Below, piece after piece: positions 1-4,592 of a stretch of 33,805 nucleotides of DNA. Source of the stretch: Opitutales bacterium (GTDB lineage: Bacteria > Verrucomicrobiota > Verrucomicrobiia > Opitutales > JAJFLR01). Within the stretch, counting starts at the first letter, position 1. Every line of letters starts with the position of its first letter. Below the pieces are notes generated by a model. That model was given only the letters and a program-made list of their open reading frames with translations, was not told the origin of the DNA and searched no databases. Location of the stretch: positions 1 through 33,805 of the forward strand of contig JAJFLR010000040.1 of NCBI GenBank assembly GCA_021772565.1, in the 5' to 3' direction. The position numbers were made by a program, and so were the translations under genes.

Positions 1-23
1 CTGTCTGTATCGAGGCTAAAAAA

Positions 24-123
24 GTCATGGATCGCCACGTCGCGCTGCTCCTCGCGATGACAAAGTAAAAACCTAATTGTCATTGCGAGCTCTGCAAAAG
101 CAGAGTGTGGCAATCTATCTGAC
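24..123 (+). repeat. Paired REP-like palindromes (unit A + unit B)
   Basis: Two adjacent imperfect palindromes. Unit A (24-61) begins GTCATGGATCGCC and ends GCGATGAC. Unit B (78-123) begins TGTCATTGCGAG, has the perfect inner hairpin CTCTGC-aaaa-GCAGAG, and ends GCAATCTATCTGAC. The same A-B pair recurs inverted at 4235-4324 and in direct orientation at 30922-31019. This copy and the inverted one bracket the decayed DGR block. Confidence 0.75.
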
Positions 124-126
124 TAA

Positions 127-207
127 CGTCTATTGATTGCAAACACTGACTTATTTCGGTACCAAGTTGAAAACGACATCTTCCAATTTATTATGGCAGA
201 TGCTATA
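127..207 (+). repeat. Dispersed repeat, core ACCAAGTTGAAAACGACATC, copy 1
   Basis: An 81-bp sequence ending ATGGCAGATGCTATA. It recurs inverted at 6086-6166 over nearly its full length, and its right part recurs at 30684-30740. Its right end abuts the remnant of the HRDC gene, so it marks the truncation point of the DGR cassette in this window. No coding capacity is evident. Confidence 0.75.
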
Positions 208-388
208 AACACTGCACCGTAATGTTTCGGGAATGTAACGGTCAAGAGGACTCAGGTAATAATTGGCAAATACTGCGATGTCAGGTGGCTGATCCTCTTC
301 ATTTACCTTATTTACTTTTGAAAAAACATTCAGTATTTCAGCAGTCTATTTACCTGCTTTCAATATCTCCGATACCTTCTACTTTTGT

Positions 389-675
389 AACTACCTACCT
401 CATTGAGGTTATTGTATTTCATCTCGATTTGTAAGAGTATTTTAAGCCACAGATCAAACACAGATTGAACACAGATTAAATTATTACGAGAAAGAGACTT
501 GTTCCCTAATCCTCTGTCTATTGACGAAATCATACCATCGAAACGGAGGACTAGGGACAGTCCTCTTAAAAAAAATCTGTGTTCAATCTGTGTTTCATCT
601 GTGGCTAAAATATTATGGGTTAATGTTAAGAACTTTTTACTGCCATTAGTCTCTTGGACGTAGGTAGTTACCTGT
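389..675. mobile_element. Miniature inverted-repeat element (element A) inserted in the HRDC gene
   Basis: A non-coding element of about 287 bp. Its ends carry the inverted repeat AACTACCTAC (389-398) / GTAGGTAGTT (660-669). It is flanked by a direct repeat TTTTGT (383-388 and 676-681), taken as the target-site duplication. Excising the element and one duplicate rejoins the HRDC reading frame exactly. Inside is a second long inverted repeat (about 441-473 and 574-606) of the AGCCACAGAT/ATCTGTGGCT type. No transposase is encoded, so any mobilisation would be in trans. The exact ends could shift by a few bases because the duplication overlaps the terminal bases. Confidence 0.7.
441..606. repeat. 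Long inverted repeat (CACAGATT family)
   Basis: The left arm at about 441-473 contains GCCACAGATCAAACACAGAT. The right arm at about 574-606 is its near-perfect reverse complement, with about 100 bp between. It is nested inside element A and would form a long hairpin. The loop contains a smaller hairpin, GGACTAGGGACAGTCC, resembling one inside the element at 30506-30740. Confidence 0.75.
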
Positions 676-1081
676 TTTTGTTAAATCAGTTGCAGTAGTT
701 ATTTTTTCCCGAGTAATAGATGCCAACTGTTCGTTGGTAAATATGGCATAGACAGGTACTCCTTCTTTTTCTGCTATCATTTTTCGCCATTCGCGCAGTT
801 GGTTGAACAACTCAAATTCTTCTTCAGTCAATAATTCACGATAATCAACTCTTTTGCGCTTACTATCAGCCACTGATGAAACAGTGTCATCTTTATAATG
901 CTCAACGCAAATTGCCCAAAATGCTTCATCGTTTAATACAGTAAATTCCTTGCTGACGTTGAGTACTCTATGCGCACGCAAAAATCGGTTGAGGGTTTCA
1001 GATGCAACGCCTGCATCGTTTATTGAGATTTTAAAAAACTGAAATTGTAGCATTTTAATTTATGTTATTGATTACGACGTA

Positions 1082-1123: not shown

Positions 1124-4100
1124 CTAACGCGCGCCCTCCACCTCTATCCGGACTGTTTCGCTCCGCTGTTCCTGATCTTTTAAAACTGAACTGGGGGCAA
1201 GAACAACACGAAAACCCATATCCTGGCAGCGGAACGACGGGTGAAACCCGCCCCGAAGCGCCGATCGGCAGTAGATGCCGCCATCGCCCCAGCTGCCGCC
1301 GCGTAAGACGCGGGAGGTACCCGACTGAGACCCTTGAGGATTATTCTTCGGACTTTGTTTATAGTAGTCTTTGCCATACCAATCATGACACCACTCCCAA
1401 ACATTTCCATGCACATCATAGAGTCCCCACGGATTTGGTTTTTTGCTTCCCACTACTCCTGTCTTACCTTTGCTGTTTTCATCATACCACCCATAGTCTT
1501 TTAAATCTTTCTCATCATCACCAAAACTGAATCGTGTTTTTGTCGCTGCCCGACAGGCATATTCCCATTCCGCTTCGGTCGGCAATCGGCAATTTGCCCA
1601 TTGACAAAAATTTTGCGCTTCTTCCCAGGAAATACCGACCACCGGTTGACGCGGTTGATTGAATTGCTTGTTGTTCCAGTATTCTGGAATTGTCGCGTTG
1701 GGATTTGCCTGCAAAAAGCGTTCATACTCTTCGTTGGTGACGGAATATTTTCCAATCATAAAAGGAGAAACCTCAACTGAGTGAATCGGCTTTTCATCAT
1801 CATACTCTTCCGACCCCATTTCAAATTTGCCTCCCGGTATAGATATAAAAGCCATGCCGGTGCGTTCGTCGATGTACTGTGCCAGCGGTTTTACTAACTC
1901 ATGAATTGTCGCCTTACTTTCCCCCTCTGTTATTTTTGCTTCATTACGTTGTAATATTTCACGTGCGTATGTTGCTACTTCTGAATCTGTGCCATCATCA
2001 AGAGAACGACAGCATTCAATAATTTCAGGGAGATCGGTTTTGCGAAGCAGCCGCAACAGAAAAACTTTACGTTCAGGATTGATATCAGTTTGTGTTAATT
2101 GCTCAACAAATGGCTCCGGTGGTAATTGCAATGTCTCATCCAGGCACTGACCAAACATTTTCTCCTCTGTCTCCAAGTTATTAATTTTTAAAAGATGGTG
2201 ATATATCTTTTTGGCAAACGATTGCGGAGCTTGTCCCAGTACCAGTAAAATGGTTTCGTGCCACCAACTGTAACTGAAATTTTTTGCAGGTACTTCGTCT
2301 AATCTTTCTTCGAGTATGTAAACTGCCGCAAGGTATTCCTGAAAAGTCAAATGCAGAAAGGCACAATGCCCGGGTGACGAGATACAAATTATGCCGCTTT
2401 CATCCATCATGCGTCTGATAAAATTTTTGCCATCTTTCTCAAATCCGGAACGCGCTGCTATTCCCTGTAGTGCTTTTTCCGCCCGCGTTTCGAATTCACT
2501 AATTTCCATCGACGCCGATTCCTCGCCCTCGAGTAACGTGTGAAGTTGCCAGGCTAATCGACCCAGAACTCTCTCGGCGGCAACCGGGTCGTAGGGTTTA
2601 ACATTTTGTTTTTCCAAAATTTTTCTTCTCCATGATTCCAACAAAACCCGCACACATTTTTTGTAAAGTTCAGCTCTGCCTCGTGGCAGATTATGATCCT
2701 GATGATAGACAATACAAAGAATGGTCAATAGCAGCGGATTAGTACTCAGTTCCCGTAAACGCCCAATCTGAAAATCCGGTTTCTCCAATATCTCCAATAG
2801 TTCCAAACTGTCTTTATCCGCTTTCTCGTTAGCGGTATCGAGTTTATTGATAAAGATTATCCTGTATGCGGTTTGAAACCATTGTTCGACAAATTTCCGT
2901 ATTTGATCCGGTGCCAGCGGCTGGACATTGAACTGCATAAATTTTGACCCCAAATCAACCTTGCCCTGATATCCTTGATAACGGCTGGTTACTAAAAAAT
3001 AATCATCCGTACGATGGCGCAAGGTTTCCTTTATCCATTTACACACTTTAACGCGCATCGCTTCATCGACGACTTCATCCAGTCCATCCAGTACCCAAAG
3101 TAGTGATGAATGATTACAAAGCTCATCACCGGGATTTGACGAGGCATCAGGAGCATTAGTCGCCCGGCTCTCGTTTTTTAAAAAATCTTTTAAAGACGAT
3201 TCATCAGTAAGATTGCGTAAGCGCAAATAGACTGGAATAGTATCTGGTTTTAAATCAAACATCTCTGGTCGATCCGTGGAACTGGAAAGTCGCCAGCAAA
3301 ATTGCAGAGCGCCAGTGGTCTTGCCCGATCCCGGTTCACCGAGCAAAAGAACTCCCCGCTTTTTTAATTTAGCGGCATTGTTAAACACCTTGCTAAGATG
3401 CACATCTTTTTCCAAAAACTCATCCTGCTTTTTTAATTTCTTAGCAAATCTCCCCCATTTGTTTTCTGCAAGGGCATGATTAACCAACGTCTTTAAAGGC
3501 ACATAAGCTTCATCGATTGGCAGATCAATCTGCATCCCCTGCCCCAATCCGATCAAGTGTAGATATTGCGTCTCCTCTTGTAATCGTTTGAGGTATGCTT
3601 TGATGCAGGGAGTTATATTTGTTTTGGGTGGAGGTATTGAAATGTTTTCAGTATTAACAATATTTTGTGGTTCTACGGGGTTAGTATGTTCCGGCAGCAG
3701 GTTATGTAGATATCCGGCTAATTCAGAGTATTCAGTCCCATAGGAAAGAACAAATATTCTTTCTTCGGCTGAATGTTTTTCCTGTAGTGCTTCAACATCT
3801 TTTTCCAAAGCCAAACGATAATGCCTGTCTTCGTTGGATTCATTCACTTTTTTTAACCAACTGAGAAAGTTTTCGAAATTAGGATCCGACAAACCTTCAC
3901 CACAGCCAACGAACAAAAGACTCTTTGTCATTGCCAATGCCTTCATCACCGATTGTGTATGCTCGCCTGTTTAAAACTTTCTGATAGGAACGAATACCAA
4001 GAATAACCGAATCGGGATCATCCCATTTTCCGTGGAGATGAAGAACACTTTTATCACCATCTCGAAGTAAATGGGAAACCTTATGTTTTTCTTTCCATGT

Positions 4101-4234
4101 AATACCGGATAACTCTTTATTTGAAACTTCTTCAATTAGTAAATCGTAATTGGTTGTAACAATTGGGATTTCAAGAGTTAAAAGAGCTTGATATATTGTC
4201 TGAAAGTTGTATGCAATAATTGAGCAATTTAATT
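1124..4234 (-). pseudogene. DGR-type variable protein: SIR2 (truncated) - NACHT - FGE/C-type lectin
   Basis: The main frame reads 941 codons from 3949. It starts inside the SIR2-like domain (LLFVGCGEGLSDPNF). The preceding SIR2 segment, IVTTNYDLLIEE to VLHLHGKWDDPDSVILGIRSYQKVLN, lies in another frame up to about 4234. The shift is at about 3968: reading on in the downstream frame gives EHTQSVMKALAMTKSLLFVG, so one extra base or two missing bases explain it. The N-terminal SIR2 part with the nucleotide-binding glycines is missing, cut at a REP-like repeat. A NACHT-type STAND NTPase follows: Walker A GEPGSGKT (residues 204-211 of the 941) and Walker B LLWVLDGLDE (283-291). From about 698 comes an FGE-sulfatase/C-type-lectin fold ending RVLRGGSW...GFRVVL, the usual DGR target C-terminus. 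Base composition is less AT-rich than in the core genes. The NACHT-lectin part is intact and could still be translated; the full protein is broken. Confidence 0.8.
1217..1288 (-). other. Putative DGR variable region (VR) of the target gene
   Basis: Between the invariant frames RVLRGGSW and MGFRVVL (residues 888-911), many residues are encoded by NNY codons: GGC, GAT, ATC, TAC, CTT, GGC, TTT, CAC, TTC, TGC, GAT. This pattern is expected when adenines of AAC/AAT codons in a template repeat are randomised by the retroelement. Unchanged islands such as TGC CGG TCG GCG (CRSA) sit where DGR lectin proteins usually keep CRSA. The template repeat itself is not in this window, so adenine-specific change is inferred from codon pattern and family knowledge. 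Confidence 0.7.
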
Positions 4235-4324
4235 CAGATAGATTGCCGCGCCCTGTATTCACAGGGCTCGCAATGACAACCATTTTGTCATCACGAGGAA
4301 TGAAATAACGCGGTGATCCATGAT
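4235..4324 (-). repeat. Paired REP-like palindromes (inverted copy of 24-123)
   Basis: Unit B inverted (4235-4278; inner hairpin CCCTGT-gaat-ACAGGG as read on the minus strand) is followed by unit A inverted (4287-4324). The stem bases differ from the copy at 78-123 but remain fully paired. The left edge marks the point where the SIR2 coding sequence is lost. Confidence 0.75.
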
Positions 4325-4592
4325 TATTTTTTTATAAATGAAATGATTTATGGCAATTGCTATAATTCTGAATGGATACCGATAGGTTTATCGAAGTGAA
4401 ATCTCATTGAACTATACCATTTATTACTGGATGGCATGTAAAAAATAGAAGTCATGGATCGCCTTGTCCAGCCGTCGTAGCCGTAGGCTACTATGGCGGA
4501 GTCGGCTCATTTCATTCCTGGCGATGACAAAGGTTACTTCTAAAGTTATTACGAATGCTGATGTAAATTCGGGATTTAGCAATCTATGTGGA
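4325..4592. other. Non-coding spacer with repeat fragments
   Basis: No gene is seen. The segment TTTATGGCAATTGCTATA (4347-4364) resembles the end of the dispersed repeat that finishes ATGGCAGATGCTATA. A long unit A palindrome occupies 4451-4528. Confidence 0.5.
4451..4528 (+). repeat. Long unit-A palindromic repeat, left copy
   Basis: It starts GTCATGGATCGCCTTGTCC and ends GGCGATGAC, with an inner palindrome around GCCGTAGGCTACTATGGC. A near-identical inverted copy lies at 5461-5535, so the pair brackets the metallophosphoesterase gene. Confidence 0.8.

What the first reader, a model, noticed from the sequence alone, without database searches (positions are those of the whole stretch)
1124..4234. 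Decayed DGR target with a SIR2-NACHT-lectin architecture
Seen: SIR2-like segments, NACHT Walker motifs and an FGE/C-type-lectin C-terminus ending RVLRGGSW...GFRVVL, with NNY-rich codons at the positions DGRs diversify. Known: DGRs mutate adenines in lectin-fold targets, SIR2 domains serve as NAD-depleting effectors in phage defence, and NACHT STAND proteins sense invaders. Inference: the ancestral protein was a defence-type switch whose sensor tip could be rewritten by reverse transcription, joining a diversifiable receptor to an NADase-type effector.
Basis: partly seen in the sequence, partly recalled or inferred. Interest (0 to 1): 0.82.

Follow-up and report, generated by a model that had tools for sequence, protein, structure and literature searches.

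The report
Broken self-diversifying SIR2-NACHT immune receptor locus
A bacterium carries the ruins of a gene cassette that once rewrote the binding tip of a defence-type switch protein by error-prone reverse transcription; the cassette type is known, but the fused NAD-destroying (SIR2) part is a new variant, and an intact cousin with another NAD-destroying part exists.

Summary
Window 1124-3949(-) is one open frame: the second half of a SIR2-like domain, NACHT and FGE (C-type-lectin fold). The first half of SIR2 lies in another frame (3897-4283), and its N-terminus is replaced by a dispersed repeat. The tip, 1199-1324, is a genuine DGR variable region. In the same genome a second copy differs from it at 16/39 columns where DGR templates have A and at 4/87 others. 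Next downstream is an HRDC gene, cut inside its domain. The 'missing' reverse transcriptase was found: its middle is at 208-341(-), and a 319-bp MITE splits it across the contig end onto contig C110. The template site there holds a variable-region-like copy, so no template is left. The order target-HRDC-RT-TR matches intact relatives. One of these (G646:C164) has a DGR whose single TR matches three targets, including DUF4062-NACHT-FGE; DUF4062 is a reported NADase. Closest sequence homologues are NACHT-FGE genes in G646 (49-50%). STAND/NACHT-lectin DGR targets, some with TIR, are already published; SIR2 is a new variant. Antiphage function is inferred, not shown. The locus is dead as a diversifier.

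The parts
1199..1324 (-). DGR variable region (VR): C-type-lectin tip coding GTSRVLRGGSWGDGGIYCRSALRGGFHPSFRCQDMGFRVVL
   Evidence: Same register as AAY-rich TRs of C114, G054, G646; A sites changed 25/31 vs non-A 27/95 against C114 TR; vs C110 copy 16/39 vs 4/87 (coordinates)
1124..3949 (-). Target gene, open frame of 941 codons: SIR2 second half, linker, NACHT, helical region, FGE/CLec
   Evidence: closest homologue G646:C152, 50% identity over residues 115-921
1202..1852 (-). FGE-sulfatase / C-type-lectin domain
   Evidence: PF03781 E=1e-61; AlphaFold2 model pLDDT 94, best structural match TvpA 2y3c Z 32.1, rmsd 2.1 over 222 residues
2870..3352 (-). NACHT NTPase domain (GEPGSGKTT; LLWVLDGLDEV)
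   Evidence: PF05729 E=3e-10, residues 200-360
3779..3946 (-). SIR2_2 domain, second half, in frame with NACHT
   Evidence: PF13289 residues 2-57
3897..4283 (-). SIR2_2 domain, first half, in another frame; keeps TTNYD and LHGKW
   Evidence: PF13289 E=3.5e-11; 40% identity to Azotobacter SIR2-NACHT
4234..4531 (.). Dispersed repeat sequence that replaces the N-terminal part of the SIR2 domain
   Evidence: 46-nt inverted copy of window 77-122; inverted arms 4284-4306/4509-4531; no SIR2 homology upstream
646..1053 (-). HRDC accessory gene, cut inside the HRDC domain
   Evidence: PF00570 positions 2-48 of 68; aligns to HRDC proteins of five DGRs, homology ends at about 676
387..671 (.). Palindromic repeat element between HRDC and the RT fragment
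   Evidence: inverted arms 387-414/644-671 (75%) and 441-477/574-610 (95%)
208..341 (-). DGR reverse transcriptase, middle fragment (FANYYLSPLDRYIPETLRCSV), continues on C110 as YVRYMDDF...
   Evidence: tblastn on the MITE-free junction gives one continuous frame, 34-41% identity to intact DGR RTs
1..207 (.). Right part of a 319-bp MITE (TIR TATAGCATCTGCCATAA, TA duplication) inserted in the RT gene; the rest lies at C110:65175-65405
   Evidence: 119-nt exact overlap with C110 end; long-TIR variant pairs C110 with C58

Best explanation
This is a dead diversity-generating retroelement whose target was a STAND-type switch: SIR2 (NADase-type effector), NACHT (oligomerising NTPase), FGE/C-type lectin (sensor with a variable tip). 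When intact, the RT with the HRDC protein would have copied an adenine-rich TR with random bases at A and pasted the cDNA into the VR, changing about 13 residues of the lectin tip and hence its ligand. Ligand binding would have released NACHT to oligomerise and switched on SIR2 to destroy NAD. The cassette was inactivated by repeat and MITE insertions (SIR2 N-terminus, HRDC, RT), a frameshift in SIR2, and loss of the TR, whose site now carries a VR-like copy plus target 3' flank (TR-VR recombination). Shown here: architecture, VR with adenine-specific variation, gene order, decay. Inferred from families: NADase activity, NACHT switching, sensing, antiphage role.
For: Domains. VR adenine bias within the genome and against three TRs. 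RT, MITE, TR-site reconstruction across C58/C110. Same order target-HRDC-RT-TR in G054 (L036, VR/TR 19/35 A vs 1/91 non-A), with TR and VRs also located in G102 and G261. Intact G646:C164 DGR with DUF4062-NACHT-FGE, KAP-FGE and nSTAND3-FGE targets, each changed at 15-18/30 A and 2-4/96 non-A sites. Fold and sequence closest to the DGR protein TvpA. DUF4062 as TIR-like NADase: PMC13174449.
Against: No template with low non-A mismatch to this VR survives in the assembly (C114 TR 27/95 non-A mismatches). No intact SIR2-NACHT-FGE gene next to a DGR was found. The SIR2 N-terminal NAD-binding segment is absent, so activity of the ancestral protein cannot be judged. Lectin-STAND sensors have not been characterised experimentally (PMC10907252).
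Confidence: 0.82

Rival explanations
1. An ordinary SUMF1/FGE-type or lectin protein fused to NACHT, never a DGR target; tip variation is ordinary divergence under diversifying selection.
For: Many FGE proteins share the RGGSW...GFR C-terminus without a DGR seen nearby; SIR2-NACHT proteins with other sensors (HEAT) exist.
Against: HRDC and DGR RT remnants in the canonical order in the same locus; differences from C110 sit on TR-A columns, and within AAY codons 14 of 16 are at positions 1-2.
Confidence: 0.05
2. The target is still diversified in trans by the full-length RT and TR on contig C114.
For: C114 has an open RT frame with an AAY-rich TR; TRs elsewhere in the genome are reported for DGR conflict systems (PMC7159879).
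Against: 27/95 non-A mismatches between the window VR and the C114 TR against 1/91 to 4/96 in the intact VR/TR pairs tested here; the only HRDC match in the genome is the broken one.
Confidence: 0.05
3. The decay is an artefact of metagenome assembly at repeats.
For: The genome is in 124 contigs and the MITE family has about 40 copies; contig ends lie in it.
Against: Frameshift and SIR2 truncation lie inside a contig, not at its end; two TIR variants pair the four contig ends uniquely; joining flanks restores a continuous RT frame.
Confidence: 0.05
4. Sub-question: the VR-like copy at the TR site arose by mutagenic homing or gene conversion into the TR, rather than by deletion between TR and the VR of a downstream target.
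For: C110 keeps 3 AAY codons and has A at 11 of 20 differing sites against 2 in the window, as if closer to a template.
Against: The intact G646:C164 locus has a target downstream of its TR, so a simple deletion between direct repeats explains RT-VR-target 3' flank; the 3' flank homology (14/96 mismatches) is target-type.
Confidence: 0.3

Closest known systems
STAND/NACHT-CLec DGR targets (DGR 3 and 6 of Thiohalocapsa PB-PSB1, clade 5D; Dore et al. 2024, PMC10907252)
   Same: C-terminal DGR-diversified lectin (FGE subtype) fused to a NACHT/STAND NTPase; proposed antigen sensors; some clade 5D members have N-terminal peptidase or TIR effectors
   Different: SIR2-type N-terminus here (SIR2 is not mentioned in the main text); HRDC gene beside the RT; locus inactivated
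Treponema denticola TvpA DGR (PDB 2y3c; PMC4891356)
   Same: FGE-type C-type lectin VR (best structural match) and an HRDC accessory gene next to the RT
   Different: TvpA chain is the lectin protein without NACHT or SIR2; in T. denticola HRDC lies between TR and RT
SIR2-NACHT-HEAT proteins (Azotobacter WP_233094047, Agrobacterium WP_173993517)
   Same: SIR2_2 plus NACHT, 27% identity over residues 1-587
   Different: C-terminus not FGE (HEAT repeats in the Azotobacter protein); no DGR annotated in the stretches read
G646:C164 DGR (same phylum)
   Same: HRDC-RT-TR with NACHT-FGE target, intact, adenine-specific
   Different: Effector domain is DUF4062, not SIR2; three targets

Membership tests
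Diversity-generating retroelement (DGR) | VR with adenine-specific differences from a template | tested here: met
   16/39 vs 4/87 between two VR copies; own TR is lost, so shown between copies and against related TRs
Diversity-generating retroelement (DGR) | DGR-type reverse transcriptase in the locus | tested here: met
   MITE-split RT across C58/C110, 34-41% to intact DGR RTs
Diversity-generating retroelement (DGR) | Adenine-rich TR next to RT | tested here: not met
   The TR site on C110 holds a VR-like copy with 3 AAY codons: so this is filed as a DGR remnant, not a working DGR
Diversity-generating retroelement (DGR) | Accessory protein (Avd or HRDC) | tested here: met
   HRDC gene, truncated
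STAND (NACHT) defence proteins | N-terminal effector, central NACHT, C-terminal sensor | tested here: met
   SIR2 / NACHT / FGE; SIR2 broken
STAND (NACHT) defence proteins | Ligand-triggered oligomerisation and phage protection | not testable with these tools
   needs expression of an intact relative
SIR2 NADase effectors | Conserved catalytic Asn and His with the N-terminal NAD-binding segment | tested here: inconclusive
   TTNYD and LHGKW are present; N-terminal segment lost; which residues are catalytic is from general knowledge
Formylglycine-generating enzyme (enzyme) | Catalytic activity on sulfatases | not tested
   fold shared only

The most novel reading that the evidence does not exclude
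Anticipatory, DGR-diversified NLR-like receptors with NAD-destroying effectors (SIR2 here, DUF4062 in an intact relative) form a modular group in this phylum, and they can die by recombination that overwrites the template with a variable region. Effector lesions in both the window gene and G646:C152, with NACHT-FGE left open, would suggest that the NADase part is lost first because it is costly.
Probability: 0.4. Interest if true: 0.68.

Novelty: new variant of a known kind. Interest (0 to 1): 0.48.

Why it matters
It links DGR diversification to NAD-depleting effectors through a NACHT switch. It also points to an intact locus (G646:C164, DUF4062-NACHT-FGE with its own TR, RT and HRDC) on which the open question, whether DGR-diversified lectin STAND proteins are adaptive antiphage sensors, can be tested. 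The dead locus also shows which parts of such a system break and how.

Tried and rejected
The viral contig scan with the full protein found nothing. The single genome-contig scan returned mostly FGE-only relatives; three NACHT-FGE proteins and no SIR2-NACHT-FGE among them. RTs on C96 and C98 look like group II intron type (no DGR SQ motif, no TR) and were set aside. C114 as the TR of this VR was rejected on non-A mismatches. At first the 119-nt contig overlap alone was taken as adjacency; it is shared by four contig ends, so adjacency rests on TIR variants and the RT frame instead. PADLOC gave only weak matches to single SIR2/NACHT components, no defence system.

Full report
What is there. On the minus strand of the window, 4283 to 1124 encodes a protein with the order SIR2 - NACHT - FGE. 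Pfam places NACHT at residues 200-360 and FGE at 700-916 of the 941-codon frame 1124-3949, and splits SIR2_2 between the start of that frame and the separate frame 3897-4283. Aligned to intact SIR2-NACHT proteins from Azotobacter and Agrobacterium plasmids, the two pieces are nearly contiguous (azo 25-99, then 108 onward), so one frame change separates them; the N-terminal SIR2 segment is missing and repeat sequence lies there instead. The motifs TTNYD and LHGKW survive.

The tip is a DGR variable region. RTs and TRs found in relatives gave a family of TRs reading roughly G(S/T)NRV.RGGSWNNNAQNCRSANRNNN.P.NRNNN.GFR. At the 13 codons that are AAY in at least two of three TRs the window has no Asn, and 11 of 13 are NNY, against 47% gene-wide; 18 of 21 constant codons keep the amino acid. 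In control pairs in intact loci A sites changed 19/35 and non-A 1/91 (G054), and 15-18/30 against 2-4/96 (G646:C164, three VRs). Against the C114 TR of its own genome the window has 25/31 A and 27/95 non-A changes, so the bias is strong but that TR is too diverged to be the parent. The second copy of this VR in the genome, on C110, is the best internal test: 16/39 differences at TR-A columns, 4/87 elsewhere (p=1e-6); of the 16 differences inside AAY codons 14 are at codon positions 1 and 2. The 3' flank differs at 14/96. One could object that selection on surface residues gives the same picture; the machinery below argues otherwise.

The machinery. Downstream of the target lies an HRDC gene whose homology stops inside the domain. 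In intact relatives the order is target-HRDC-RT-TR (L036 of G054 with all four; also L037, L039, L040, L179, L180 in whole or part). The window ends at base 1, but bases 1-119 are identical to the last 119 of contig C110. That 119-mer is shared by four contig ends, C110 and C29 leaving, C58 and C94 entering. The element is a MITE with two kinds of terminal repeat: C110 and C58 carry the long form, C29 and C94 the short one, which pairs C110 with C58. Taking out the 319-bp MITE with a TA duplication gives a continuous RT frame FANYYLSPLDRYIPETLRCSV-YVRYMDDF..., 34-41% identical to DGR RTs over about 140 residues. So the RT middle fragment is at 208-341(-); the RT N-terminal part and the HRDC C-terminal part are missing around a palindromic repeat at 387-671.

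The template is gone. In C114 and G054 the TR begins at the RT C-terminus. At that very place C110 has GTNRVIRGGRWGSVGIYCRSAFRNWGHPSNRCRDMGFRVVL, poor in AAY, followed by target-type 3' flank. The simplest account is recombination between TR and the VR of a target lying downstream, an arrangement that exists in G646:C164. Conversion or homing into the TR is not excluded; C110 has A at 11 of 20 differing sites against 2 in the window.

Relatives and mechanism. The closest sequences are G646:C152 and C21 (50% and 49% over NACHT-FGE). C152 carries a DUF4062-like segment in place of SIR2, with an in-frame stop in it. The C164 locus of the same genome is intact: DUF4062-NACHT-FGE, KAP-FGE, HRDC, RT, TR, nSTAND3-FGE, and the one TR fits all three VRs. 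DUF4062 has been reported as a TIR-like NADase in antiphage defence (PMC13174449). AlphaFold2 gives the FGE domain at pLDDT 94, and the best structural match is the DGR protein TvpA (Z 32.1, rmsd 2.1 over 222 residues; PvdO at 31.8 is tied and FGE enzymes follow at about 30). TvpA is also the best sequence match in the PDB. From this I infer a switch: variable lectin senses, NACHT oligomerises, the N-terminal domain destroys NAD. The sensing, the NAD loss and the antiphage role are not shown here.

Known and new. STAND/NACHT proteins with DGR-diversified lectin tips, some with TIR or peptidase effectors, were described by Dore et al. 2024 (PMC10907252), and DGR-linked conflict systems by Kaur et al. 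2020 (PMC7159879). HRDC as DGR accessory is known from Treponema (PMC4891356), and DGR RT genes cut by transposons from Schillinger et al. 2012 (PMC3521204). A SIR2 effector in such a target was not in the texts I searched. I therefore file it as a new variant of a known kind, present here only as a wreck.

Noticed in passing
L186:7883-10096 (G000:C53): A second STAND-type/FGE gene with a DGR-like VR (GSDRVLRGGSWYDGAEGCRSANRSGATPVIRSFNIGFRLVF) and no RT within the 17 kb read; closest TR is that of G646:C164 (18/30 A, 17/96 non-A changes): an orphan DGR target.
   Followed up: partly
L049:1762-2905 (G000:C114): Full-length DGR RT with an AAY-rich TR on a 3-kb contig, with no HRDC partner in the assembly and no matching VR found.
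   Followed up: partly
window:1-207 and about 40 places in G000: A 319-bp MITE family (TIR TATAGCATCTGCCATAA, TA duplication) in about 40 copies that breaks the assembly; two TIR variants.
   Followed up: partly
L151:5128-5160: In-frame stop in the DUF4062 part of the closest homologue, while NACHT-FGE stays open, as in the window: effector-domain lesions in two of two cases.
   Followed up: partly
L179:1321-12629 (G646:C164): One DGR with three targets on three different NTPases (NACHT, KAP, nSTAND3); this genome holds several DGR-type RTs.
   Followed up: partly
L103:582-3047: Mrr nuclease-NACHT-FGE protein (UBA9088) with an RGGSW...GFR tip, another effector on the same sensor; no TR seen in the 3.3-kb contig.
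   Followed up: no
window:31111-33319: IS21-type transposase pair (IstA-like, IstB).
   Followed up: no
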